Source of the DNA: an uncultured Lachnospiraceae bacterium
Lineage (GTDB): Bacteria; Bacillota; Clostridia; Lachnospirales; Lachnospiraceae
Assembly (NCBI GenBank): GCA_947382625.1
Contig: CANDAG010000008.1
Span: forward strand, 1-64,000
Direction: 5' to 3'
DNA: 64,000 nucleotides
The notes below the pieces were generated by a model that worked only from the letters and a program-made list of their open reading frames with translations, did not search any database and was not told the origin of the DNA. Below are positions 2,584 to 16,704 of this stretch, one piece after another (the first letter of the stretch is position 1; every line of letters starts with the position of its first letter). The translations under genes and the position numbers were made by a program.

Positions 2584-3420
2584 ATGTCGTATATCCTATG
2601 CGCAGACGATACTGCACGGAAGATCAGTGCAGCTTACTTTAACAATTATATCCACGGCTTTGTTCATCCGGACCGTGTAATGAAGGAGCACGATCTGATC
2701 TATATGTGTGATGGTGAATGGGAAATCTATCTGGAGGAGACACCGATCCTGTTGAAAAAGGATTTTGTTTTGATCCTGCCGGCAGGAGTTCATCATTATG
2801 GTCTGCAAAAATGTTTGGACGGTACCAGAACGATGTTTATTCATGTATCAGCGGAGAAGGATGATTTCAGGAGAGAAAAATTTGAAGAATCGTCAGACAC
2901 AGGGAAGATCCCCCTTGGCCTCCTGACAGACTGCGCCCATGCACAAAACGTGAAGAGGCTTTTTGAAAATATTATCGAGGAGTTTTCTTCCGTAAATGTT
3001 TACAGAGATAATCGTATGACAGCCCTTTATCATTTGTTGCTTACAGAATTATACAGTGCCCGCTGTGCCGGGAAGGGAGAGGTGCAGGAGGAGCTTGTCA
3101 AAGAAATGCTGCGTGTGATCCGGGAGGAGCCGGGCCGGTTTCACACGGTGAAGGAATTAGCGGAACTGTTTTTTGTGAGTCCCAGAACAGCGGCCGGGCA
3201 TTTTAAAGAGGCAACGGGAGTTTCAGTCCACAAATTTGAGATGAATATGAAATTGGATTCGGCCGCTGCCTTTATAAGGGATTATCCTCATATAAAGCTC
3301 CGTGAATTGGCCAGGAATTTCGGGTTTTATGATGAATTTCATTTTAGCAAGGCTTTTTCCCAAAGGTTTTCGATATCTCCTGCAGCTTATCGGAATCATG
3401 ATGGAAGAAATGATTTGTGA
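2584..3420 (+). CDS. AraC-family transcriptional regulator
   Basis: A 278-residue cytoplasmic regulator with an N-terminal cupin-like sensor (about residues 20-110, including LILPAGVHHYGLQ) and a C-terminal double helix-turn-helix (about 180-275, with LAELFFVSPRTAAGHFK and FYDEFHFSKAFSQRFSISP). AAGGAG precedes the ATG. It is divergent from the Gfo/Idh gene and upstream of the M60 peptidase gene; control of either neighbour by a sugar effector is plausible but not shown. Confidence 0.9.
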   Translation: MSYILCADDTARKISAAYFNNYIHGFVHPDRVMKEHDLIYMCDGEWEIYLEETPILLKKDFVLILPAGVHHYGLQKCLDGTRTMFIHVSAEKDDFRREKFEESSDTGKIPLGLLTDCAHAQNVKRLFENIIEEFSSVNVYRDNRMTALYHLLLTELYSARCAGKGEVQEELVKEMLRVIREEPGRFHTVKELAELFFVSPRTAAGHFKEATGVSVHKFEMNMKLDSAAAFIRDYPHIKLRELARNFGFYDEFHFSKAFSQRFSISPAAYRNHDGRNDL

Positions 3421-3527: not shown

Positions 3528-3556
3528 TTGAAAAAAGAAAATGGAAATGATATACT
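3528..3556 (+). promoter_or_regulatory. promoter for the M60 peptidase gene
   Basis: TTGAAA (3528-3533), a 17-base spacer and TATACT (3551-3556) match a sigma-A promoter. It lies 85 bases before the peptidase start, which has its own AAGGAG site. The bases just upstream (3490-3525) hold repeated CAAAA/CCGCC words of unknown role. Confidence 0.6.
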
Positions 3557-3641: not shown

Positions 3642-6600
3642 ATGAAACGAGTGACGGCCTGGTTTTTGACATTGAGTTTGATCTTATTATGTGTTCGCCC
3701 TGTGCAGGCGAAGGTGATAGATACAGATGTATTGCCTTCGCCTGAGAAAACTCTGGAAAATGAAGGGATAACAGAAGATGCAGACACGGGAGAAAGCAAT
3801 CCCGGTGTCGGCGCGGAAGAGGGGAGTCCCAGCTCCGGTGCAGGAGTAAGCAATTCCGGTTCCGATACAGAGGGCCCAAGTCCCAGTTCTGCTATGGAAG
3901 AAGGAAGCCCCAGCCCCGGTACAGAAGAAGGGAGTCCCGGCCCCAGTGCAGGGGTAAGCAGTTCAGGCTCCGGCACAGAGGGTCAAAGCCCCAGTCCTGA
4001 TATAGAGGTAGGCATCCCCGGCACCAGCCCGGAGGAGGTGAGCCCAAGTCCGGATGCAGATGCCAAAGAGGAAGAAAAGGAAGGGGCTGCGGTTCCTTCC
4101 GCAGTGCCTTTCTCAGGGAAAAGTGTCTGGAATGACCAGAATGCACCGTCCGGCGCCCCGGGGGCTGTTGAGGTGATCTTGATGAATGCGATCCCGGCAG
4201 ATGGAATACAGCTCAGCGTCTGCCTGGAAAAGGACGGAAGCCTTATAGGGGAAACAAAGTCGGTATCTCTCGGAAAAAATTCATTGAAGCATCCCGTGAC
4301 CTTTGAGGGACTGAGTGCAGGCACTTACAGTCTTAAGATTGCTGCGCCCGGATTTATTGAATATCAACAGGATATTGAGGTAAACGGAAACATCCAGACG
4401 GCAGAGGTCCACACAGGCTTTGTCAATCTGGCGGCGTTATCCAAAGAAGGCCGGGAGTTTTCTTATGTCAGAGGAAAAGCCCATCCGGGAGTGATCCTGA
4501 TCGGGGATGTGAACCGGGATGGGATTCTTGACGATCAGGACAAGGATGCGATCATGAGCGCTATGAGCAAGGGGAAAGACGGCGTTCTTACAGGTGATCC
4601 GGATCAGAACCCTACAGATCTGGACAGGGATGGCAAGACGGATCTTGTGGATCTGCAGTATTATGTGAACAGCCGTGCGAAGCTGAACGCCGGAGTGGAT
4701 ATGACAGCTTCTTTAAGCAGTGTTGTTGTGCCTGAGGCGGTAAAGGTCAACTTAAGCACAGAGACAGAGGTGGCAGAAGGAAGCAGCCTTGAGGATATTT
4801 TAAAAGAAAACGGAAAAACAGTTTCTCTGCAGAATAGGGACGGACTGGAGATTTCCGATGTCAATCCCGTAGAATTCGGTTTCAACCTCCAGAGCAAAGA
4901 GCAGGAGGAGCAGGGCCAATGTGTTTCCATGGATCAGGTGGTGATCTCTATGGGGGACTCCTCCATCCAAAGCGCTGTGATAAGCTATGAAACTGTAGAT
5001 GGAGGGTCGGAAACGATCTATATTGTAGACGGTAAGCAGGCTTATGATGCGGTCGCTCAGGCAATTTCCACCCGGAGCGGGGAACAGGGAGACGGTGAAG
5101 GACAGCCAGAAGCGGCGGGTCTTATGCAGAGCAGGAATCAAAATGGCCGTAATGATCAGCTTGTGATAGATTTAGGCTCTCAGACAGCCATTAAGAGGAT
5201 AGAGTTCAGGATCACGGATACCAAAAACAAAACCCTTGCCCAGATCAGCAAGGTGGAATTTTTAAATGGTATGGAAAATCGGATCCCTGAGCCGGAGATG
5301 GATAAGCCCTCCGGTCTTTCGGCAGAGCCGGGGGATAAGTCCTTTACCCTGAAATGGGATAAAGCGGTGAATGTTACAGGCTATGAGGTGGCGATCACCT
5401 ACGGCGGGGAGACGGAGGTAGTCCGCGCGGCTTCCGAAAGCCTGGAGGTTAAGTCTTTTGGCGGAAACAAGCTGGTCAATAAAGAGACCTATGAGGTGTG
5501 TGTCCAGTCTGTAAACGGTACATGGGCCAGCGGCTACAGTGAGAAGATCACAGTTACTCCGGATGTTTCCAAGGTGCCTGATGCGCCGGATAATCTGAAG
5601 GCTGTGGGTGGTTATTGTGTGGTCCGCATGAGCTGGAAAAATATGAAGGATACGGATACCTATAATGTTTATTACAGGGAGGCAGGAGCAGAGTCTTTCA
5701 CCAAGGTAGAGGGACTGACCCAAAACAAGTATGAGGTCACAGGTCTGAAGGAGAAGACGAAATATGAGGTATATGTGACAGGGGTGAACAGCCTGGGAGA
5801 GGGAGGACGTTCTATTATCTCAGAGGCAGTGACCACCACCCTTACCCCTGCCAAGATGCCGGAGTATAAGCTGATCAACGAGTCGAAGGGTAAGGGTAAG
5901 GTGAGCGCTCATATTCTGGATGTGACCCATGTGAGAGGCTCTATGGTGTCGAGCCCTCTGGATGGTCAGTCATCGGGGGGTGGCAGGAAAAGTGCACTGG
6001 GAACGGTGGATAAGGATTTTGCTTCCAGCTACCAGATCCTGGACTGGGATGACGGCGCCGCCTATGTGTCGCCGGATAAAGGGCTTTTGTTTACCTTAGA
6101 TGATTATTATGAAATGAGCTATATCACCTTTGCTGAGACGGAGGATATTGCTTCTTATGGAAAGGTATCGGTTTATTATTATGATAAGGAGCATCCAAAC
6201 GGTACTTATTCCGAGAACCCGGTGGTGTTGCAGCGGTCGGATGCAAACGGAAGGAAGTTTTACCTGATCAAGCTCTCAGAGCCCGTTACAGCCAACAAGG
6301 TGCGGCTGGGATTTGCGCGGGGCTACAATCTGCGGAACATTGTGATCGCAGAGGTAAATTTTTATCATTATGACAGCCTGGAGGACGATATCCTTGCCTT
6401 ATACGAAAACGACCTGCAGACTTCCCTGAAAGAGGGCGTGACGGAAGAAACCATTAATGAATTACAGAAGCGGCTGGATACGGTGGATGAGAAGAGCGGT
6501 GAGTATCATCCGGAGCGTGGAGTGCTGCAGAGAGAGCTGGATAATGCAAGGGGACTTTTGGCCCATGGCTTTAACGATGTGATCACAATTAAGCCTCAGA

Positions 6601-9329
6601 TCACGGCGCGGAAGGATGGACATCTGGGCTTTGGCGGCCTGAATGCATGGCAGCCTCTGGGAGTCACAGCCTATGAAGGAGAGCAGATCGTGGTTTATGT
6701 GGGGCATGATCAGCTGAAGACAGGCTCCAATTCTGCCCTGAAGCTGATCGCTACCCAGTATCATGCAGAGGCAGGTGCTTTTGCCTCCGAGGTTGCTTCC
6801 TTAAAGGTGGGACGCAATGAGATCACCATACCCTCCATCCAGAGTCTGGCCTGTGAGGGAGGCGGCGCCCTTTATATCCAATATACCGGAGACAACAGTA
6901 ATGACCAATATGCAGTGAGGGTGAACGGCGGAGCAAGGGAGCCGGTGCTTGATCTTTACGGTATCACGGATGAGTCGGAGCGGGCGGCGCTGGTGACGGC
7001 TTATGTAAAGGAGTTGGAGGAGCATGTGGCTTCCCAGGAGGCGCTCCATAAAGAGAAGCATGAGACAGCCGGTGAAAATAATAAGGTTAACCGGGCCTAC
7101 GATAAGCAGAACTGTATTTTGGGCGCTACAGAGATCGTATTGGATCAGATGATGCTGTCCGTTTCAGGGGAGCAGATTCTGGCAGGGCTTGGAAAAGGTT
7201 CTCTGGAGGAAAAGGCGGAAAAGCTGGATCAGTCTCTTTGTGCAATGGATGAAATGCTGGGGTTATTTTATCACCATAAGGGGCTTAGTCAGGATGCTTC
7301 AGCCCCGGCCACAGACAGGATGCCCGCCCAGCATTTAAATATCCGCTATATGAGAATGTTTGCGGGAGCGTTTATGTATGCTTCCGGAAATCACATAGGT
7401 ATTGAGTGGGGATCTGTGCCCGGATTGTCTGCAGCAGTTCCCGTGAAGGCAGACAATGGCAGATACGTCAGCGGAAATTACTTTGGCTGGGGAATCGCCC
7501 ATGAGATCGGACATAACATTAATCAGGGAAGCTATGCCATAGCGGAGGTGACCAACAATTACTTTTCCGTGCTGGCTCAGGCAAAGGAAAGGAACGATTC
7601 CGTACGGTTTAAGTATGAGGATGTTTACCGGAAGGTAACCTCCGGAACCACAGGAAAGCCATCCAATGTATTCACCCACCTTGCCATGTACTGGCAGCTG
7701 CACCTTGCCTACGACAGAGGCTATAATTATAAGATTTATGATAGCTATCAGGAGCAGCATGACAATCTGTTCTACGCCAGGGTGGATTCCTACAGCAGGA
7801 ACACGGCAATGGCTCCCGGAAGCCTTAAGCTGGGCAGCAACAGTGACCAGAATATCATGCGTCTTTCCTGTGCGGCGGCCGAGAAGGACCTGACAGAATT
7901 TTTCCTGCGCTGGGGGCTCATACCTGATGAGGAGACGATCCGGTATGCCAGCCAGTTCCCCGGGGAAGAGCGGGCCTTGTATTACTTAACGGATGAAGCC
8001 AGGGCTTATGAGATTGAAAACAAAGGAGTGGCAGGAACCATTAAGGGCAGGGATGTAGTCAGCCCGGGAAGCAGCGTGGAGGTCAGCAGGAATATACCCA
8101 ATGAAGTAAATCTTTCGATCCGGTGCGCAGGCGGAGTGGATCAGGATGTGATCCTGGGGTATGAGATCGCCAGATACTGCTATGAGGACGGAGTACCCGT
8201 CCGTCAGGTGATCGGCTTTACCACAGAGGAGACCTGGCAGGATCATGTGGCAGTCGTAAATAACCGGGTGATGACCTATGAAGTGATAGCCGTGGACAAA
8301 TTCGGTTACCGTTCCAACCCGGAGGTGATCGGGGAGGTCAAGATCTCTCACGATGGCAGCCATGACAAGTCTCTGTGGACAGTGACCACCAATATGTCCT
8401 CGGAGGAAGACCGGGCAGAGGAAGCCGAAGAAAATGATCCCTGTGCGCCGGAGAAGATTTCTGCCATCAGCAGGATCATCGACAATGATTATAAAAATAC
8501 TTATACGGGCACAGCCGGGAGCGGTGATGCAACAGTGCTTCTGCAGTTAAATCAGGTGCTTCCCGTATGCGGTCTGAAGGTTACCACAGATTCAGGCACC
8601 CCGATCGGAAGCTATGAGATCCAGGTGAGTGTAGATGGCAGCACCTGGACTACCGTGAAGGCAGGAAGCCTTGAGGGCAAAGGAAAGAGTCAGACTGTTT
8701 ATTTTGAAAATGCAGAGAAAGATCCCTGGGTATGTACCTATGACGCCGCTTACGTGAGGCTGAAGGCAACAGGGCAGAGCAGGGTAAGTATTTCAGAGAT
8801 CGACCTGTTGGGACCTTCAGGAGACGATGTGTCCTTTGGAGCAGAGGAGGAGAGCATCAAGGGCGCTGTGGGAATCCTTCAGGAGGATTATGTCTATGAG
8901 AAAAAAGAGGGAGCGGAGAAGTTTATTCCTAAGGGCTCTTTGATCTTCACCGGAAGCTATAAGGGAAATCCGGCCTACAATGTGGTGGCGCTCTATGATG
9001 AAACCGGCTCTGTGGTAGGAGGACTGGATGAAAACGGCGCACTTAAGGCGGAGCAGATCATTCTGGCAAATGTTCCGGAAAACGGACTCTTAGGCGAAGT
9101 GAGCAGAGGAACCTGGATCTACTGGATCGCACCCTCATCAGAGGGAGGTCTTCCGGAGATCAGCGGAAAGGTACGGGCACAGCTGTACCGCGTGGATAAC
9201 GCCATGACCAATGAAGGTCAGCGGCTTGTAAGCGATACCCTGCCTCTGGAGATGCCCAAATTGGAGGATATGGACAGGATCACCCTCAAAAATGAGACAG
9301 ATACAGCAGAAGATGTGCGGAAACAGTGA
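3642..9329 (+). CDS. secreted M60-family metallopeptidase with dockerin, FN3 and discoidin-like domains
   Basis: A 1,895-residue surface protein. Order of parts: signal peptide (1-24, ending PVQAKV); Ser/Pro/Gly/Glu-rich linker (about 45-150); a domain ending near 275; a dockerin-like double calcium loop (about 288-347, GDVNRDGILDDQD and DLDRDGKTDLVD); two FN3 domains (about 548-735); a discoidin-like region (about 760-910); the M60 peptidase (about 980-1440) with HEIGH at 1287-1291 and the third zinc ligand Glu1302 in AEVTNN; then an FN3-like and an F5/8C-like domain. M60 enzymes cut mucin-type O-glycosylated proteins. The gene overlaps a cohesin-like gene downstream, so surface display through dockerin-cohesin contact is inferred. 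Confidence 0.88.
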   Translation: MKRVTAWFLTLSLILLCVRPVQAKVIDTDVLPSPEKTLENEGITEDADTGESNPGVGAEEGSPSSGAGVSNSGSDTEGPSPSSAMEEGSPSPGTEEGSPGPSAGVSSSGSGTEGQSPSPDIEVGIPGTSPEEVSPSPDADAKEEEKEGAAVPSAVPFSGKSVWNDQNAPSGAPGAVEVILMNAIPADGIQLSVCLEKDGSLIGETKSVSLGKNSLKHPVTFEGLSAGTYSLKIAAPGFIEYQQDIEVNGNIQTAEVHTGFVNLAALSKEGREFSYVRGKAHPGVILIGDVNRDGILDDQDKDAIMSAMSKGKDGVLTGDPDQNPTDLDRDGKTDLVDLQYYVNSRAKLNAGVDMTASLSSVVVPEAVKVNLSTETEVAEGSSLEDILKENGKTVSLQNRDGLEISDVNPVEFGFNLQSKEQEEQGQCVSMDQVVISMGDSSIQSAVISYETVDGGSETIYIVDGKQAYDAVAQAISTRSGEQGDGEGQPEAAGLMQSRNQNGRNDQLVIDLGSQTAIKRIEFRITDTKNKTLAQISKVEFLNGMENRIPEPEMDKPSGLSAEPGDKSFTLKWDKAVNVTGYEVAITYGGETEVVRAASESLEVKSFGGNKLVNKETYEVCVQSVNGTWASGYSEKITVTPDVSKVPDAPDNLKAVGGYCVVRMSWKNMKDTDTYNVYYREAGAESFTKVEGLTQNKYEVTGLKEKTKYEVYVTGVNSLGEGGRSIISEAVTTTLTPAKMPEYKLINESKGKGKVSAHILDVTHVRGSMVSSPLDGQSSGGGRKSALGTVDKDFASSYQILDWDDGAAYVSPDKGLLFTLDDYYEMSYITFAETEDIASYGKVSVYYYDKEHPNGTYSENPVVLQRSDANGRKFYLIKLSEPVTANKVRLGFARGYNLRNIVIAEVNFYHYDSLEDDILALYENDLQTSLKEGVTEETINELQKRLDTVDEKSGEYHPERGVLQRELDNARGLLAHGFNDVITIKPQITARKDGHLGFGGLNAWQPLGVTAYEGEQIVVYVGHDQLKTGSNSALKLIATQYHAEAGAFASEVASLKVGRNEITIPSIQSLACEGGGALYIQYTGDNSNDQYAVRVNGGAREPVLDLYGITDESERAALVTAYVKELEEHVASQEALHKEKHETAGENNKVNRAYDKQNCILGATEIVLDQMMLSVSGEQILAGLGKGSLEEKAEKLDQSLCAMDEMLGLFYHHKGLSQDASAPATDRMPAQHLNIRYMRMFAGAFMYASGNHIGIEWGSVPGLSAAVPVKADNGRYVSGNYFGWGIAHEIGHNINQGSYAIAEVTNNYFSVLAQAKERNDSVRFKYEDVYRKVTSGTTGKPSNVFTHLAMYWQLHLAYDRGYNYKIYDSYQEQHDNLFYARVDSYSRNTAMAPGSLKLGSNSDQNIMRLSCAAAEKDLTEFFLRWGLIPDEETIRYASQFPGEERALYYLTDEARAYEIENKGVAGTIKGRDVVSPGSSVEVSRNIPNEVNLSIRCAGGVDQDVILGYEIARYCYEDGVPVRQVIGFTTEETWQDHVAVVNNRVMTYEVIAVDKFGYRSNPEVIGEVKISHDGSHDKSLWTVTTNMSSEEDRAEEAEENDPCAPEKISAISRIIDNDYKNTYTGTAGSGDATVLLQLNQVLPVCGLKVTTDSGTPIGSYEIQVSVDGSTWTTVKAGSLEGKGKSQTVYFENAEKDPWVCTYDAAYVRLKATGQSRVSISEIDLLGPSGDDVSFGAEEESIKGAVGILQEDYVYEKKEGAEKFIPKGSLIFTGSYKGNPAYNVVALYDETGSVVGGLDENGALKAEQIILANVPENGLLGEVSRGTWIYWIAPSSEGGLPEISGKVRAQLYRVDNAMTNEGQRLVSDTLPLEMPKLEDMDRITLKNETDTAEDVRKQ

Positions 9330-10776
9330 CAAAAAGAAAACTTTCAAGAAAACTTTTAAGAAAACTTTTTCGCAGATGGGAGCAAAGGTGAAGAGGATCA
9401 GGAACGGACTATATTTGATAACGGCCATACTGGCGCTTTTTCTTCCGGCACAGGCATTTGCCGCCGGGCAGGATGGGGTATCTTTTGAGCAGGATGGAGA
9501 CCTGGTGGCCGTAGCCCTGGAAATGGGAAATGCACAGCAGGAAAAAATATCGGCGGTTGCGGTTTCCCTGCAGATCGATGAAGGAAGCCGGGATAAGGTG
9601 AAGGCGGAATTTGATTTTGCCGGAGAATTAGGCGGAGCGGTAAAGGGATTTTTGTATGATGAAAGCACGGGAGTCCTGGATGTCTACGCCGCTTCTGACC
9701 AGAGCCTGTTTGCCGAGGATATCCTGAATCTGGGATATGTGCGGGTGACTCTCAAGGATTCCGGCGATGTTCTGCCGGTAGAGATCAGCTATCTGGGGGC
9801 GTCCTTCCAAACCGCCAATGAGGTTTACGGGGAAAAGCGGCCCATGGTGAATCGTACCCCGGAGCCTGTGAAAATGCAGGTGGGGGAAGGCACCCCGGGT
9901 ACCGGAGAGAATCCTCCGGATAATAGCGGAGGAGATACCGGCCAGGAGGGAGTGCCCGGCGGCGGAAACGGCACAGACGGCGTCCCGGGCGGCAGTGGAA
10001 ATGGCGCTCCGGGAAGTAATAGTTCCGGCAGCAGCTCCGGCAACGCCAACATAGACCAGGGATTGAATGATGAGAAGACTCAGTTTAAGAATGACCCTTC
10101 CAGTGCACAGCCGATTACCTCCTCTGTGATCAACAAAAACCAGACCCATACGGAGCTGACAAATATGAGTCAGCCGGCGGTTTTGACAGGCGGCAGCAGA
10201 CCGGGTGGAAGCAGCAGCCCTAAGCTGTCCCGGCCGGAAAATAAGGTATCCGTGGTTTCTCCTGCCAATGGTCCGTCAAGTATTCATATAGCCAAAGGCG
10301 ATCAGCACAGCTCCGGCAGAGGATCCGGAACGGAAAGCGGGGAAGGCCGGACGGATTTTGGGCAGGAATCTTCGGGAACAGGTTTTTCTGATGGAACGGG
10401 GGAAGAAATATCCGGCGGAGAGGGTGCTGGAGGAGATGAGATCCTTCTGGATCAAAAAGAAGGAGGAGCCATAAAAGAAAGCCTTACAAAGAGAAACCTC
10501 ATCCTGAGGATTGCCGGGATCATTGCCGGTTTCTCGGGTGTGGCAGGACTTGGAGCCTTTGGGCTGGTGAAGATAAAGGGTGCATTTGCCCCCGCAAAAA
10601 AGAGAAGGTCTCCCGGGAAAAGGTCTCCCAAAAAGAAGTCTGCCGGAGGAAGGCCTGGCGAGAAGAGGCCGGTCGGAAGAAAGCCTGTCCGAAAGAAGAC
10701 GGTCGGGAAAAAGACGGCGGCGCAGAGACGGAGGAAGCCGGTGCGGACAGGGAAAGCGATGAGTAAGGGACGATAA
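9292..10776 (+). CDS. membrane-anchored cohesin-like protein with a basic C-terminal tail
   Basis: A 494-residue protein. After a Lys-rich start it has a signal peptide (core GLYLITAILALFLPAQAFAA), a cohesin-like beta-sandwich (about 60-195, with VAVALEMGN, ISAVAVSLQI and LGYVRVTLKDSG), a Gly/Ser-rich linker (about 200-390), one membrane helix (about 402-427) and a roughly 60-residue tail packed with Lys and Arg. No LPxTG sorting motif is visible, so it is probably a single-pass membrane anchor. The start is uncertain: ATGs at 9292, 9313 and 9376 all lack a good SD, and the first two overlap the peptidase gene, which suggests translational coupling. The cohesin call is by pattern and neighbour, not by search. 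Confidence 0.66.
   Translation: MRQIQQKMCGNSDKKKTFKKTFKKTFSQMGAKVKRIRNGLYLITAILALFLPAQAFAAGQDGVSFEQDGDLVAVALEMGNAQQEKISAVAVSLQIDEGSRDKVKAEFDFAGELGGAVKGFLYDESTGVLDVYAASDQSLFAEDILNLGYVRVTLKDSGDVLPVEISYLGASFQTANEVYGEKRPMVNRTPEPVKMQVGEGTPGTGENPPDNSGGDTGQEGVPGGGNGTDGVPGGSGNGAPGSNSSGSSSGNANIDQGLNDEKTQFKNDPSSAQPITSSVINKNQTHTELTNMSQPAVLTGGSRPGGSSSPKLSRPENKVSVVSPANGPSSIHIAKGDQHSSGRGSGTESGEGRTDFGQESSGTGFSDGTGEEISGGEGAGGDEILLDQKEGGAIKESLTKRNLILRIAGIIAGFSGVAGLGAFGLVKIKGAFAPAKKRRSPGKRSPKKKSAGGRPGEKRPVGRKPVRKKTVGKKTAAQRRRKPVRTGKAMSKGR
9337..9370 (+). repeat. 12-base tandem repeat at the start of the cohesin-like gene
   Basis: The unit aaaactttyaag occurs nearly three times (9337-9348, 9349-9360, 9361-9370) and encodes KKTF repeats. 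A and T runs make it a possible slippage site. It starts just after the stop codon of the peptidase gene. Confidence 0.6.
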
Positions 10777-11489: not shown

Positions 11490-13505
11490 ATGAAGGATGG
11501 CTATTTAATGTATGGAGGCGATTACAATCCGGAGCAGTGGCTTTCTATGCCAAAGGCTTTGGAGACAGATCTTGCGCGCTTTGAGGAGGCCGGGATCAAT
11601 ACGGTATCGCTGGGGATTTTTGCCTGGGCAAAATTGGAGCCCAGGGAGGGGGAATTTTGTTTTGACTGGATGGAAAATATCATAAACAGGCTTTATGAGA
11701 GAGGGATTTCGGTGATCCTGGCAACACCCTCCGGAGCCCGTCCCCACTGGATGGCAGATAAATACCCGGAGGTTCTCAGGGTCAATGAAATGCGGCAGAA
11801 GGCTCTTTTTGGAGCCAGGCATAATCATTGTATGACCTCGCCTCTTTACCGGGAAAAGGTGGGCCAGATCAATTATCTGCTGGCAGAGCGTTTTGGCAAT
11901 CATCCCGGGGTAAAGATGTGGCATATTTCCAATGAATATGGAGGAGAGTGTCATTGCGAGTTATGTCAGCAGGCATTCAGAGAATGGCTGAAGAAAAAGT
12001 ACCAAACCATAGACGCCTTAAACGATGCCTGGTGTACTGCTTTCTGGAGTCATACCTACGATGATTTTGAACAGGTGGAAAGTCCCTCACCCCTGGGTGA
12101 GACCAGTATTATGGGACTTATTCTGGACTGGCACCGGTTTGTCTCTGACCAGACCATTGATTTTATGGAGAAGGAGATCGATGCGCTCAGAAAGGCAGGA
12201 GCCGGTCAGCCGGTTACTGCAAATCTCATGTACCATTTCGGTGGCATCGATTATTTCCGACTGGCACAAAAAATCGATGTGGCTTCCTGGGACAGTTATC
12301 CTACCTGGCATAAGAAGCCGGAATGGGAGACTGCAAGGGATACGGCCTTCTGGCATGATGTGATCCGCAGCCTTAAGAGAAAGCCCTTCCTGATGCTGGA
12401 GTCCTGTCCCGGAGCAACCAACTGGCAGGGCGTGAGTAAGCTGAAAAAGCCGGGGATGGTGGCGGCCGCCTCCCTGCAGAGTATTGCCCACGGCGCCGAT
12501 GGGGCCTTATATTTTCAGATGCGCAAGAGCAGAGGCGGGGAAGAAAAGTTCCACGGTGCAGTGATAGACCACTATGACGGAAACGACACCAGAACCTTCC
12601 GGGATGTGGCAGAAACCGGGGAAATGCTTGCCCGTTTAGGGGAGGTGTCGGGAACCGAAACCTGTGCCCGGGCAGCGGTTCTGTATGACTGGGAGAACCG
12701 CTGGGCCTTAGAGGGGTCTAAGGGACCCAGAAACGATGGGCTCTATTATGAAGAATGTGTGGAAAAATCCTACCGGGCTCTTCGGAGGCTGGGGGTGAAT
12801 GTGGATGTGATAGACCAGACCTTTGATCTTTCGGATTACCGTTTTGTGGCGGCTCCCATGGAGTATCTTTTCCGTCCGGGCTTTGAGAAAAAGGTAAGGG
12901 ATTATGTGGAAAAGGGCGGCATTTTTGTGATGACCTACTGGTCCGGGGTGGTGGACGAGAATGACTGCTGTTTCCTGGGCGGCACGCCTTACGGGCTGAT
13001 GGATGTGTTAGGACTCCGCAGCGAGGAGATCGATGCTCTTTACGACTGGGAGGAAAATACTGTCTGTCAGACCGAAGAAGGGCTTGCCGGAATGAAGGAA
13101 AGCTATACCTGCAAATATTTATGCCAGCTTGTAAAGCCTGACGGGGCCCAGACATTGATGGTCTACGGCAAGGATTTTTACGCGGGGTTGCCTGCTCTTT
13201 TGAAAAACGATTTTGGTAAGGGTCACGCCTATTATGTATGCGCGGATATGGAGCAGGGGTTCTATGATGACCTTTATCGGATATTAGCCGGGGAAGCCGG
13301 GCTTAGAAGTCCCTGGCCGGAGGAAATCCCGGAGGGCGTGGAGCTTACTGTCAGAAGCAGCCGGGAAGCGGATTATGTGTTTCTCCAGAATTTCGGCAGG
13401 GAAACGGTGGAACTGAAGCTGCCGGAAGGGGAGGTCCTTATGGGCAGCCGGGACGGCAGGATGGAGCATCTCGAAGCCATCGTGCTGAAGCTGGAGAGAG
13501 GATGA
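11490..13505 (+). CDS. beta-galactosidase, GH42
   Basis: A 671-residue cytoplasmic enzyme that removes terminal beta-galactose from oligosaccharides. The N-terminal TIM barrel contains the acid/base Glu149 (WHISNEYGG) and the nucleophile Glu304 (MLESCPGATNW). The HCELC cysteines next to the active site fit the GH42 zinc cluster. Residues of about 390-600 form the trimerisation domain and the rest a small beta domain; the length is normal for GH42. AGAAAGGAAC precedes the ATG. No signal peptide is seen, so it acts on imported sugar. The GH2 beta-galactosidase follows 136 bases later but with its own promoter. Confidence 0.93.
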   Translation: MKDGYLMYGGDYNPEQWLSMPKALETDLARFEEAGINTVSLGIFAWAKLEPREGEFCFDWMENIINRLYERGISVILATPSGARPHWMADKYPEVLRVNEMRQKALFGARHNHCMTSPLYREKVGQINYLLAERFGNHPGVKMWHISNEYGGECHCELCQQAFREWLKKKYQTIDALNDAWCTAFWSHTYDDFEQVESPSPLGETSIMGLILDWHRFVSDQTIDFMEKEIDALRKAGAGQPVTANLMYHFGGIDYFRLAQKIDVASWDSYPTWHKKPEWETARDTAFWHDVIRSLKRKPFLMLESCPGATNWQGVSKLKKPGMVAAASLQSIAHGADGALYFQMRKSRGGEEKFHGAVIDHYDGNDTRTFRDVAETGEMLARLGEVSGTETCARAAVLYDWENRWALEGSKGPRNDGLYYEECVEKSYRALRRLGVNVDVIDQTFDLSDYRFVAAPMEYLFRPGFEKKVRDYVEKGGIFVMTYWSGVVDENDCCFLGGTPYGLMDVLGLRSEEIDALYDWEENTVCQTEEGLAGMKESYTCKYLCQLVKPDGAQTLMVYGKDFYAGLPALLKNDFGKGHAYYVCADMEQGFYDDLYRILAGEAGLRSPWPEEIPEGVELTVRSSREADYVFLQNFGRETVELKLPEGEVLMGSRDGRMEHLEAIVLKLERG

Positions 13506-13516
13506 AATTTTTTATT

Positions 13517-13554
13517 AACATAAGGATAACCTGCAGAGCGTGTTATCCGTTGTG
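13517..13554 (+). repeat. hairpin repeat family A, copy A2
   Basis: Outer arms AACA and TGTG (three pairs), then taag, inner stem GATAAC/GTTATC (perfect), loop ctgcagagcgt. Here the inner stem is A/T-rich, in contrast to the G/C-rich stem of copy A5 at the same place. Confidence 0.7.
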
Positions 13555-13583
13555 TAAATTCCGGTTTTGTGCAATAAAAAACA

Positions 13584-13613
13584 TGGCAATCGGGAGAGCA
13601 CATCCTTTATAAT
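13584..13613 (+). promoter_or_regulatory. promoter for the GH2 beta-galactosidase
   Basis: TGGCAA (13584-13589), an 18-base spacer and a perfect TATAAT (13608-13613), followed by TAGGAGG before the ATG at 13642. Confidence 0.5.
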
Positions 13614-13641
13614 AAAAATAACACAGTAGGAGGTAAGAAAT

Positions 13642-16600
13642 ATGATCATTCCAAAGTATTACGAGGATTTAAATGTGCTGCATATGAATACCATGCCCAA
13701 CAGGGCTTACTATATTCCTGCAGCAGCAAGGCTTGCAGATCCGGCAGAATGCCGGGAGGAGTCGGAGCGTTTTGTACTTTTGTCAGGGGATTGGAAATTC
13801 CGGTATTTTGACAGCATTTATGATGTGAAGGAGGAGTTTTTCCAGGAAGGATACGATACTGCCGGTTTTGATGAGGTGACAGTGCCGGAGGTATGGCAGA
13901 ATTACGGCTATGACCGTCATCAGTATACCAACACCCGTTATCCTTTTCCCATGGATCCCCCGTATGTGCCCTGCGAAAATCCTTGCGGGGAGTATGTGCG
14001 TACCTTCACTTATCACAGGGAAGAGGGTGCACCCAGGGCGTACCTGAATTTTGAGGGAGTGGATTCCTGCTTTTATGTATGGATGAACGGCAGCTTTGTG
14101 GGATACAGCCAGGTTTCTCATTCCACCAGTGAGTTTGACGTAACGGACACTCTTAAGGAAGGGGAAAACACCCTCTGCGTACTGGTTTTGAAATGGTGTG
14201 ACGGAAGCTATTTGGAGGATCAGGACAAGTTCAGGATGAGCGGGATCTTCCGGGATGTCTATCTTCTGAAACGGCCGGAACAGGGCATTTTTGACTATTT
14301 TGTAAAGGCGCAGCCCACAGAAGATTTTAAGGGTGGAAACGTGGAGATTACCTTCCGGTATCTGGACAGGCCTGTGCCTGTAAGGGCAAGTCTTTTTGAT
14401 AAGGAAGATAAGCTGATCGCTCAGGCGGATGGGGCGGAGAATACAGTCTCCCTTCACGTGGAGGAGGCAAGGCTCTGGAATGCGGAGGATCCTTATCTGT
14501 ATACCCTGGTTCTTGAGACGGAAGATGAGGTGATCACGGATCAGGTGGGTATCCGGGAGATCCATACAAAGGACGGCGTACTGTATATCAATGGAGTGAA
14601 TGTGAAATTCCGTGGTACCAACCGTCATGATTCAGACCCGGTGACCGGCTTTGCCATCAGCCCGGCTCAGCTGAAGAAGGATCTGAAGGTAATGAAGGAG
14701 CATAATATCAATGCCATCCGTACTAGCCATTATCCTAACGCTCCCTGGGCTTATCAGCTTTATGACCGCCTGGGCTTTTATGTTATCGATGAAGCGGACA
14801 ATGAGAGTCATGGAACGGAAGAAGTCTACATGAAGGACAGAGAATGGGAAGCCAGAGCAAGGATGTGGGGCATCGCCATAGCGGACAATCCGGAGTTTAC
14901 CGAGGCCACAGTGGACAGGACCAGGCGTTGCGTGGAACGGGATAAGAACCGGCCAAGCGTGGTGATCTGGTCTATGGGAAATGAATGTGCTTATGGATGT
15001 ACCTTTGAGGCGGCGCTTAAGTGGACCAAGGAATTTGATCCTACCCGTCTGACCCATTATGAAGCGGTCCGTTATGTACCCAGAGATGACTGTGATCTCA
15101 GCAATGTGGACCTGCACAGCCGGATGTACCCTGCCCTTACGGAGATCCACAGATATTTTGAGGAGGATGGTTCGCTTCCTTATGTGATGTGTGAATATTG
15201 CCACGCCATGGGAAACGGCCCCGGCGATCTGGAGGATTACTTTGCCCTGATCCAGCAGTATGACGGGATCTGCGGCGGATTTATCTGGGAGTGGTGTGAT
15301 CACGCCATTGAAACCGGAAGAACGATTACAGGAAAGAAAATGTATGCTTACGGCGGCGACCACCAGGAATTCCCCCATGACGGCAATTTCTGTATGGATG
15401 GTCTGGTATATCCTGACCGCAGGCCTCACACCGGTCTGATGGAATTTAAAAATGTCCATCGCCCTGTCAGAGTGGTTTCCCTGAATCAGACAGGCTCCGA
15501 TCAGGGGATTAAGGAGCTGGTGCTCCACAACTATATGGATTTTGTAAATCTGAAGGATTACCTGACCATCGGATACGAGGTGATCTGTGATGGCATTCCG
15601 GTAGAAAAAGGTGCGGTTACCGATCCTGAGCTTTTGGATATCCCCGCCCATGGAGAAAAGGCGGTTCCTTTTGCCTTCCATATTCCTGAAAGCGGGAAGT
15701 GCTTCCTTAAGGTTTCCTATTATCTGAAGGAGGCAAATGAGATTCTTCCTGCAGGCTTTTTGCTTGGATTTGAGGAGACAGAGCTTTTCAATGCAAGAAA
15801 TGAAAATCAGAAGGTAAAGGAGCTTTTCGAAAAGGAACATGGTCTGGCGGAATTCGAGATCAGAGAGGATGATCGAAGCATTACCGTTTCCACCCGGGAG
15901 TTCAGCTATACCTATGATAAATTAACAGGCGTGTTCCGGGAAATGGTTTATCAGAACCAGTCTCTCCTTGAGCGTCCTATGGAATATAATATCTGGCGTG
16001 CGCCTACTGATAATGACAGAGTGATCAAGTCAGAATGGAGGGCAGCCGGGTATGACCGCATTGTCACCAGGGCTTATGAGACCCATTTGAGTGCAAAGCC
16101 GGATAAGGTAAAGATTAGCACCACCCTTTCAATCTCCGCCATTTACCTTCAGAGGATATTGAACATCAACGCCTGCTGGACGATCTGGCCGGACGGCACT
16201 GTGGATGTATCACTTCATGGGGAGAAGGATCCGGTATTCCCGTTCCTGCCAAGGTTTGGCCTCCGGATGTTTATGCCAAAGGAAATGGATCGGGTAAACT
16301 ACTGCGGAATCGGGCCTGTGGAAAGCTATATCGATAAGAGGTGGGCCGGATACCACGGAGTGTTTGATACGGATGTGAAGGCAATGCACGAGGATTATAT
16401 CCGTCCTCAGGAAAACGGCAGCCACCATGACTGTGATTACGTAACGGTGGGAAGCGGCAAAGCGGCCCTGACCATAGCCAGCAGGAATACCTTTGCCTTT
16501 AACGCCTCTGTTTATACTCAGGAGGAGCTTACCGCAAAGGCTCATAATTATGAGCTGGAAGAGTCACCCTATACGGTGCTGTGTGTAGATTACCGCCAGA

Positions 16601-16704
16601 GCGGGATCGGTTCCGGAAGCTGCGGCCCTCAGCTTCTTGAGAAGTATCGGTTAAACGGAGAAAAGATAGATTTTGAATTCAGGATGAGACCTGAGAATAA
16701 ATAA
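13642..16704 (+). CDS. lacZ: beta-galactosidase, GH2 (LacZ type)
   Basis: A 1,020-residue cytoplasmic beta-galactosidase of full LacZ length. Domains in order: sugar-binding jelly roll (about 40-220), immunoglobulin-like domain (to about 310), TIM barrel with acid/base Glu448 (WSMGNECAYG) and nucleophile Glu518 (VMCEYCHAMGNGPG), a further Ig-like domain and the large C-terminal beta-sandwich (small chain of LacZ). The LacZ signature EYCHAMGN, where a Cys replaces the common Ala, supports the call. It follows the GH42 gene and ends in a strong terminator. Two unrelated beta-galactosidases side by side suggest different linkages or chain lengths as substrates. Confidence 0.94.
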   Translation: MIIPKYYEDLNVLHMNTMPNRAYYIPAAARLADPAECREESERFVLLSGDWKFRYFDSIYDVKEEFFQEGYDTAGFDEVTVPEVWQNYGYDRHQYTNTRYPFPMDPPYVPCENPCGEYVRTFTYHREEGAPRAYLNFEGVDSCFYVWMNGSFVGYSQVSHSTSEFDVTDTLKEGENTLCVLVLKWCDGSYLEDQDKFRMSGIFRDVYLLKRPEQGIFDYFVKAQPTEDFKGGNVEITFRYLDRPVPVRASLFDKEDKLIAQADGAENTVSLHVEEARLWNAEDPYLYTLVLETEDEVITDQVGIREIHTKDGVLYINGVNVKFRGTNRHDSDPVTGFAISPAQLKKDLKVMKEHNINAIRTSHYPNAPWAYQLYDRLGFYVIDEADNESHGTEEVYMKDREWEARARMWGIAIADNPEFTEATVDRTRRCVERDKNRPSVVIWSMGNECAYGCTFEAALKWTKEFDPTRLTHYEAVRYVPRDDCDLSNVDLHSRMYPALTEIHRYFEEDGSLPYVMCEYCHAMGNGPGDLEDYFALIQQYDGICGGFIWEWCDHAIETGRTITGKKMYAYGGDHQEFPHDGNFCMDGLVYPDRRPHTGLMEFKNVHRPVRVVSLNQTGSDQGIKELVLHNYMDFVNLKDYLTIGYEVICDGIPVEKGAVTDPELLDIPAHGEKAVPFAFHIPESGKCFLKVSYYLKEANEILPAGFLLGFEETELFNARNENQKVKELFEKEHGLAEFEIREDDRSITVSTREFSYTYDKLTGVFREMVYQNQSLLERPMEYNIWRAPTDNDRVIKSEWRAAGYDRIVTRAYETHLSAKPDKVKISTTLSISAIYLQRILNINACWTIWPDGTVDVSLHGEKDPVFPFLPRFGLRMFMPKEMDRVNYCGIGPVESYIDKRWAGYHGVFDTDVKAMHEDYIRPQENGSHHDCDYVTVGSGKAALTIASRNTFAFNASVYTQEELTAKAHNYELEESPYTVLCVDYRQSGIGSGSCGPQLLEKYRLNGEKIDFEFRMRPENK

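What the first reader, a model, noticed from the sequence alone, without database searches (positions are those of the whole stretch)
3642..10776. Dockerin-bearing M60 mucinase next to its own cohesin-like membrane anchor
The 1,895-residue secreted peptidase has a full M60 zinc motif (HEIGH plus Glu1302) and a two-loop dockerin, and the overlapping next gene encodes a signal-peptide protein with a cohesin-like domain and a membrane helix. Known cellulosomes attach plant-wall enzymes through dockerin-cohesin pairs. A dedicated two-gene module for showing a host-glycoprotein protease on the cell surface would be a minimal 'mucinosome'. The domains are read by eye; the pairing is inferred from adjacency.
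Basis: partly seen in the sequence, partly recalled or inferred. Interest (0 to 1): 0.78.

Follow-up and report, generated by a model that had tools for sequence, protein, structure and literature searches.

The report
Mucin protease with dedicated surface anchor
A gut bacterium makes a large enzyme predicted to cut mucus proteins together with a small companion protein that probably holds it on the cell surface; relatives keep the two genes together, although the physical grip between them has not been tested.

Summary
The M60 peptidase is real: Pfam M60 match, HEIGH plus Glu1302. Its N-terminal dockerin is missed by Pfam in this protein but clear in a 73-sequence family profile (CelS dockerin, E 1.2e-6), behind an Ig-like X module as in scaffoldin X-dockerins. 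Gene 2 has a signal peptide, a beta-rich domain, a membrane helix and a basic tail.

The pairing is far stronger than adjacency in one genome. Of 118 M60 loci, 109 carry the gene-2 family next door or fused; 7 of 9 misses are contig ends. Immediate flanking genes are rarely shared. Five loci are fused, with a second dockerin after the cohesin-like domain. In 7 of 12 preselected genomes the peptidase has the only dockerin at E<=0.05 and Pfam finds no cohesin at E<=0.1. Along the peptidase, the dockerin is the segment whose divergence best tracks gene 2.

Best reading: a one-enzyme, one-anchor cohesin-dockerin display unit for a mucin-type protease, with interchangeable anchors. Binding is untested. 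New variant of a known kind. The 38-nt gene overlap is probably a start-codon artefact.

The parts
3528..3556 (+). promoter-like site (TTGAAA-17-TATACT, TG before second hexamer)
   Evidence: consensus scan only, 10 of 12 matches; 13 sites found in the region against 8.6 expected; not evidence of function
3642..9329 (+). secreted M60 peptidase, 1895 aa, AGGAG upstream of ATG
4155..4478 (+). X module (PEGA / carboxypeptidase-regulatory-like, Ig-like), aa 172-279
   Evidence: Pfam PEGA E 2.6e-4 at aa 207-252; local HMM; X+Doc profile aligns to scaffoldin chains 4wi0_B and 4u3s_B over positions 46-161/164
4479..4670 (+). two-loop dockerin, aa 280-343
5583..5825 (+). fibronectin type III domain (best of two stretches), aa 648-728
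   Evidence: Pfam fn3 E 2.1e-17
7485..7916 (+). M60 catalytic core, aa 1282-1425, with HEIGH at 7500-7514 and Glu1302 at 7545-7547
   Evidence: Pfam PF13402 E 1.1e-12; solved M60 chains, best E 4.8e-22
8469..8786 (+). F5/8 type C (CBM32-like) domain, aa 1610-1715
   Evidence: Pfam E 8.3e-7
9292..10776 (+). anchor protein, 494 aa as listed; true start possibly codon 29 (9376)
   Evidence: family conserved next to M60
9472..9894 (+). cohesin-like domain, aa 61-201 of the anchor protein
   Evidence: family profile; cohesin resemblance weak
10495..10569 (+). membrane helix, aa 402-426
   Evidence: sequence; C-terminal helix in 71 of 99 non-redundant pairs by the script's rule
10570..10773 (+). 68-residue tail, 29 of them Lys/Arg

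Best explanation
The two genes make one surface-display unit. The M60 enzyme is secreted; its N-terminal X-dockerin is bound by the cohesin-like domain of the neighbouring protein, which is held in the envelope by its membrane helix (in relatives by choline-binding-type repeats, Big_2 or fn3 modules, or, in fused forms, linked onward by a second dockerin). The enzyme, a predicted O-glycopeptidase with a CBM32-like domain, thus stays on the producing cell and cuts host mucin-type glycoproteins there. Shown here: genes, domains other than the cohesin assignment, conservation of the pair, fusions, near-exclusivity of the X-dockerin, segment-level co-divergence. Inferred: the physical dockerin-cohesin contact, surface location, and mucin as substrate.
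For: Pair conservation: gene-2 family next to or fused with M60 in 109 of 118 M60 loci (38 from 37 family genomes plus 80 named loci, partly the same genomes); 7 of the 9 misses are contig ends. All 32 of 397 genomes with the cohesin-like domain are among the 37 of 397 with this M60. Flank control: immediate upstream genes homologous in 38 of 3916 locus pairs, downstream in 8 of 3916, M60 in 4850 of 4851, the cohesin-like domain in 2488 of 4851 by BLASTP at 1e-5. Five fusions (L029, L030, L104, L190, L197); a dockerin follows the cohesin-like domain by Pfam in L104 and L190 (E 3.5e-6, 4.1e-7), weakly in L029 and L030 (E 0.0029, 0.33) and by eye in L197. X-Doc profile: in 36 of 37 genomes the best match is in the M60 frame (31 span nearly the whole model, 5 are partial); in G158, whose M60 is cut at a contig end, it is in a 266-aa frame at another contig end; no other match spans more than 81 of 166 positions. 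In 11 of 12 preselected genomes the M60 dockerin is the only one at E<=0.05 (in the twelfth it scores 0.09), and 7 of the 12 show no Pfam cohesin at E<=0.1. Co-divergence: dockerin windows give the four highest partial correlations with gene 2 along the peptidase (best 0.31), winning 73.6% of 500 delete-half samples; the dockerin against 66 other segments reaches at most 0.135. Anchors vary while the first domain stays. Precedent: in 5 of 6 loci fetched around short single-cohesin ORFs, an SP-cohesin-TM protein lies beside or one gene from a dockerin protein (in one of the five, L237, the dockerin has no Pfam match).
Against: No Pfam or PDB cohesin match for the window domain or family profile. 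Profile-profile similarity to cohesins is weak (main group: hhalign probability 3-7%, P 0.004-0.009); the divergent subgroup gives P 0.066, and with the two most divergent members P 0.11, where three of eight control templates score better; with all members the global score is no better than reversed cohesins (P 0.031 vs 0.026). The best match of the cohesin-like profile among 355 test frames was a stretch outside the cohesin of L214 (E 6e-4). Residue-level mutual information did not favour the dockerin (3 of top 25 pairs against 30% expected). By raw correlation the dockerin wins only 44.4% of resamplings (X module 25.2%), and a window at 580-629 reaches partial 0.226. The own genome has another possible partner, a GH31 cohesin. 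No structure or binding test was possible.
Confidence: 0.72

Rival explanations
1. Gene 2 is a dedicated surface partner of the peptidase, but its first domain is another beta-sandwich, not a cohesin, and grips a different part of the enzyme (for example the X module) or acts as a chaperone or inhibitor.
For: No Pfam/PDB cohesin match; best HMM match in the test set lies outside a cohesin; X-module windows also show raised partial correlation, 0.21-0.23; MI pairs fall mostly in X.
Against: Dockerin windows beat X windows in the scan and in 73.6% vs 5.8% of resamplings; for the main group and for all members, cohesins score better than all 8 control templates in local hhalign; same layout as short single-Pfam-cohesin anchors.
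Confidence: 0.15
2. The dockerin binds a cohesin elsewhere (a scaffoldin, or the GH31 cohesin on contig C23), and gene 2 receives other dockerins.
For: The own genome has a GH31 protein with Pfam dockerin and cohesin; five relatives have 19-39 Pfam dockerins.
Against: 7 of 12 preselected genomes whose only dockerin at E<=0.05 is on M60 show no Pfam cohesin at E<=0.1; strict co-occurrence and fusion with gene 2.
Confidence: 0.08
3. The dockerin-like repeat is only a structural calcium module without a partner and the two genes are merely an operon.
For: Dockerin-like EF repeats can be structural (general knowledge, no call).
Against: Protein fusions, varied anchors with a constant first domain, and dockerin-centred co-divergence.
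Confidence: 0.05

Closest known systems
Clostridium perfringens X82 cohesin and dockerin modules on host-glycan enzymes (NagJ, NagH, NanJ)
   Same: Single cohesins and dockerins on secreted enzymes acting on host glycans; pairwise contacts, no multi-cohesin scaffoldin (PMC12997984, section 21 and passages; the original binding paper is known to me only from recall and from that citation).
   Different: There each cohesin is carried by a glycoside hydrolase; here a non-catalytic membrane protein carries a Pfam-silent domain and serves one peptidase.
Limousia mucinolysome
   Same: Dockerin-bearing peptidases and glycosidases for mucin, and an anchoring cohesin protein (PMC12997984).
   Different: Several scaffoldins, some with tandem cohesins, and many enzymes; here one enzyme and one anchor, no scaffoldin gene seen.
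X-dockerin / anchoring-cohesin pairs of cellulosomes (chains 2b59_B, 4wi0_B, 4u3s_B)
   Same: X module plus dockerin; the profile aligns across both in 4wi0_B and 4u3s_B and over the dockerin part in 2b59_B; the partner is a cell-surface anchoring cohesin (recalled).
   Different: There the X-Doc sits on a scaffoldin; here directly on the enzyme, near its N terminus.
ZmpA/ZmpC and other M60 glycopeptidases
   Same: M60 catalytic domain; solved chains 7jfs, 5kdj, 6xsz (ZmpC), 6xsx (ZmpA) match (that these are from C. perfringens is recalled).
   Different: The N-terminal X-dockerin and the paired anchor gene; Nakjang 2012 lists Dockerin type 1 with counts of 2 and 2 among M60 proteins and has no occurrence of 'cohesin' in its main text (PMC3267712, passages).
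Short single-cohesin membrane proteins of other Lachnospiraceae (L235-L239)
   Same: Signal peptide, one cohesin, linker, membrane helix; beside or near a dockerin protein.
   Different: Their cohesin is found with Pfam and their dockerin neighbours are not M60 peptidases by Pfam.

Membership tests
Peptidase M60 (PF13402) | Profile match over curated cut-off | tested here: met
   48.5 bits against 25.8
Peptidase M60 (PF13402) | HExxH(8,20)E zinc motif | tested here: met
   HEIGH 1287-1291 and E1302
Peptidase M60 (PF13402) | Mucin / O-glycoprotein cleavage | not testable with these tools
   needs an enzyme assay
Type I dockerin (PF00404) | Pfam match of the window protein itself | tested here: not met
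   none at E<=1
Type I dockerin (PF00404) | Duplicated calcium loop-helix with dockerin-type profile similarity | tested here: met
   11 of 14 A2 members match Dockerin_1, not the window protein; family profile vs CelS dockerin E 1.2e-6
Cohesin (PF00963) | Profile match over cut-off | tested here: not met
   0 of 15 family members at E<=1; best single relative L129, 14 bits, E 0.06, one of 10 chosen after scoring
Cohesin (PF00963) | Nine-strand jelly-roll fold | not testable with these tools
   structure prediction switched off
Cohesin (PF00963) | Remote profile-profile similarity | tested here: inconclusive
   main group local P 0.005-0.009, better than 8 controls; divergent subgroups not; mixed global results
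Cohesin (PF00963) | Calcium-dependent dockerin binding | not testable with these tools
   needs a bench test
Cellulosome-like complex | Scaffoldin with several cohesins recruiting several enzymes | tested here: not met
   own genome: one Pfam cohesin over cut-off (on the GH31 protein), one weak hit at E 0.153, one cohesin-like domain; genome 88% complete

The most novel reading that the evidence does not exclude
A separate, Pfam-silent branch of the cohesin superfamily has evolved as a private 1:1 receptor for one mucin-protease family. The pair is seen at 109 loci here, and at least 574 related M60 stretches exist, so it is probably spread through hundreds of gut Lachnospiraceae and Oscillospiraceae-type genomes. 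The receptor domain is kept while the anchor varies between membrane helix, wall-binding repeats and, in dockerin-rich genomes, a second dockerin.
Probability: 0.6. Interest if true: 0.75.

Novelty: new variant of a known kind. Interest (0 to 1): 0.62.

Why it matters
If true, commensal gut Clostridia display a predicted mucin protease with a two-protein, cellulosome-type clip that Pfam cohesin searches miss. It would place mucin cleavage at the cell surface rather than in the lumen, give a new binding pair for protein engineering, and show how cohesin-dockerin logic works without a scaffoldin. The claim is directly testable with two purified domains.

Tried and rejected
A single-sequence search for gene-2 relatives in genome contigs found none; the M60 alignment then worked. 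Residue-level mutual information between X-Doc and the cohesin-like domain was dominated by the X module and gave no usable interface. The 38-nt overlap as translational coupling was set aside because the start is uncertain. The promoter scan was above and the terminator scan below the shuffled mean by little (13 vs 8.6, 7 vs 9.9). 'Cohesin family member' was not claimed: Pfam and PDB searches negative. The cohesin-like profile's best match in the test set was a stretch of L214 outside its cohesin; by eye it looks like a cadherin-like sandwich domain (recalled; the search meant to check it failed). The share of weaker hits inside cohesins (18 of 34 hits with the all-member profile, cohesins 8.4% of residues) is inflated by duplicate loci and non-coding frames and is not used as proof. 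Mann-Whitney values treat related sequences as independent. The 8 control templates are segments of the M60 alignment (14 rows or fewer), less diverse than the cohesin set.

Rows dropped and selections: redundancy filter 106 to 99 pairs, one anchor truncated; flanks scorable for 89 of 99 loci on each side, chosen by a longest-ORF rule of at least 150 aa, so some may not be genes; A4 used 71 of the 73 domains listed (L136 and L178 left out); A5 used 73 of 73. The 12 genomes were picked from the 37 because one search showed a single X-Doc hit and no Pfam cohesin at 1e-4; they are not a random sample. One search missed the own-genome GH31 cohesin that one search found, so absence in multi-genome searches is less sure. 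The six loci were picked from the eight printed.
Full report
What is there. ORF 3642-9329 encodes a 1895-aa secreted protein: signal peptide, low-complexity linker, X module (aa 172-279), dockerin (280-343), fn3 (two stretches), M60 core (1282-1425) and an F5/8 type C domain (1610-1715). The best solved matches are M60 chains 7jfs and 5kdj (E 4.8e-22, 1e-21) and the ZmpC glycopeptidase 6xsz (E 1e-17). ORF 9292-10776 encodes the anchor protein: signal peptide, cohesin-like domain (61-201), Gly/Ser-rich linker, membrane helix (402-426) and a 68-residue tail with 29 Lys/Arg.

Dockerin. Pfam does not see it in the window protein. Dockerin_1 matches 11 of the 14 aligned homologues at E<=0.1, the window protein not among them. 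A profile of 73 X-Doc segments matches the CelS dockerin at E 1.2e-6 and aligns across X and dockerin with scaffoldin chains 4wi0_B and 4u3s_B. The X-Doc layout is that of cellulosomal surface-anchoring pairs (recalled).

Cohesin-like domain. 0 of 15 family members match Pfam cohesin at E<=1 (one search showed only part of its list), and the 71-row profile hits no PDB chain at E<=10. Against 46 cohesin domains from loci found with PF00963, hhalign gives local P 0.005-0.009 for the main group, better than all eight control templates (P>=0.072 for the 94-member group), and one end-to-end global alignment (P 0.0043, 144 columns). The divergent subgroup alone gives P 0.066; with the two most divergent members it is 0.11 and three controls score better (0.081-0.10). 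With all members the global score is no better than reversed cohesins (0.031 vs 0.026). A cohesin HMM scores the 112 domains above reversed copies (median 1.9 vs 0.4 bits). One relative (L129) gives Pfam cohesin at E 0.06, picked because it scored high. I therefore say cohesin-like and leave membership open.

The pair is a conserved unit. The domain profile hits 32 of 397 family genomes, the M60 region 37 of 397, and all 32 are among the 37. Three of the five others have the gene adjacent by a local HMM; the last two have the most divergent M60 and a secreted downstream protein that looks similar by eye. A named-genome scan returned at least 574 related stretches, of which 80 were kept. Across the 118 M60 loci held (38 + 80, partly the same genomes), 109 have the gene next door or fused; 7 of the 9 misses end within 410 bases of the M60 stop; 115 have the dockerin, and the other 3 (L030, L136, L162) are 5'-truncated. 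Immediate flanking genes are rarely shared: 38 of 3916 locus pairs upstream, 8 of 3916 downstream, against 4850 of 4851 for M60; the fast-evolving cohesin-like domain itself is BLASTP-detectable in 2488 of 4851 pairs and is followed by profile.

Fusions and anchors. In L029, L030, L104, L190 and L197 the cohesin-like domain is fused to the peptidase C terminus and is followed by a dockerin instead of a membrane helix: by Pfam in L104 and L190 (E 3.5e-6, 4.1e-7), weakly in L029 and L030 (E 0.0029, 0.33), by eye in L197. Of 99 non-redundant pairs, 71 carry a C-terminal membrane helix by the script's rule, 23 do not (two of these, L100 and L127, have a helix followed by a long basic tail), 4 are fused and 1 is truncated. 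Tails include choline-binding-type repeats, Big_2, fn3 and FIVAR modules. The first domain is constant; the anchor changes.

Exclusivity. In 36 of 37 genomes the best X-Doc match lies in the M60 frame, 31 nearly full length and 5 partial (G111, G114, G179, G242, G269); in G158 it lies in a 266-aa frame at a contig end, probably the split N terminus of the fused gene. No other match spans more than 81 of 166 positions. In 12 genomes preselected for lacking other hits, the M60 dockerin is the only one at E<=0.05 in 11; in G367 it scores 0.09 and nothing else appears; weaker non-M60 hits exist in G392 (0.059) and G262 (0.095). Seven of the 12 show no Pfam cohesin at E<=0.1. There the neighbour is the only visible partner. 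The own genome is less clean: a GH31 protein carries both a dockerin and a cohesin.

Co-divergence. For 99 pairs I compared distances of the cohesin-like domain with those of 50-column windows along the peptidase, controlling for whole-protein distance. The four highest partial values all fall in windows between 283 and 373, over the dockerin (best 0.31). The dockerin wins 73.6% of 500 delete-half samples, the X module 5.8%, elsewhere 20.6%; by raw correlation it wins 44.4%, X 25.2% (coarser scan). The dockerin against 66 other segments of its own protein reaches at most 0.135 against 0.281 for gene 2. This is supportive, not a formal probability. Residue-level mutual information gave no usable interface.

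Precedent inside the family. Of six loci fetched around short single-cohesin ORFs, five (L235-L239) have a signal peptide-cohesin-linker-helix protein beside, or one gene from, a dockerin-bearing protein; the dockerin of L237 rests on a local HMM only, and in L235 the partner is itself a small cohesin-dockerin protein; L240 has no dockerin nearby. The layout thus recurs in Lachnospiraceae, and the M60 pair looks like its Pfam-silent, mucinase-carrying version.

Known work. The Limousia mucinolysome paper (PMC12997984; outline, passages, section 21) describes dockerin-bearing mucin enzymes and C. perfringens pairwise complexes, found with Pfam cohesin and dockerin models; such a screen would probably miss this domain. 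Nakjang 2012 (PMC3267712; passages) lists Dockerin type 1 among M60 proteins with counts of 2 and has no 'cohesin' in its main text. I found no description of this two-gene unit in the listings of searches of an open-access library; I opened only these two papers, and subscription papers were not searched.

Verdict. A dedicated anchor for the peptidase: about 0.9. Contact through dockerin and cohesin-like domain: about 0.72. Cohesin fold: about 0.75. Mucin-type substrate: likely from the family, untested here.

Noticed in passing
L033:5580-9668 (own genome contig C23): GH31 enzyme with F5/8C, dockerin and cohesin in tandem at its C terminus; the only Pfam dockerin and cohesin over cut-off found in this genome.
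   Followed up: partly
L022:5946-11294 (G281): Second M60 copy with a degraded motif (HVIGH instead of HEIGH) that still has dockerin and its own anchor gene: a possible pseudoenzyme on display.
   Followed up: no
L235-L239: Single Pfam-type cohesin membrane proteins beside or near dockerin-bearing secreted proteins of unknown function; the 1552-aa neighbour in L237 has no Pfam match at E<=0.001.
   Followed up: partly
G220, G255: 39 and 28 Pfam dockerins at E<=0.01 but no Pfam cohesin at E<=1e-4 in the multi-genome search: possibly other Pfam-silent cohesins.
   Followed up: no
window 2584-3420 and 11490-16704: An AraC-type regulator precedes the pair and GH42 and GH2 beta-galactosidases follow it; immediate flanks are rarely shared among relatives.
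   Followed up: partly
G000:C46:1097-1201: Short weak M60-like match (14.5 bits, below cut-off) in an 88-aa frame.
   Followed up: no
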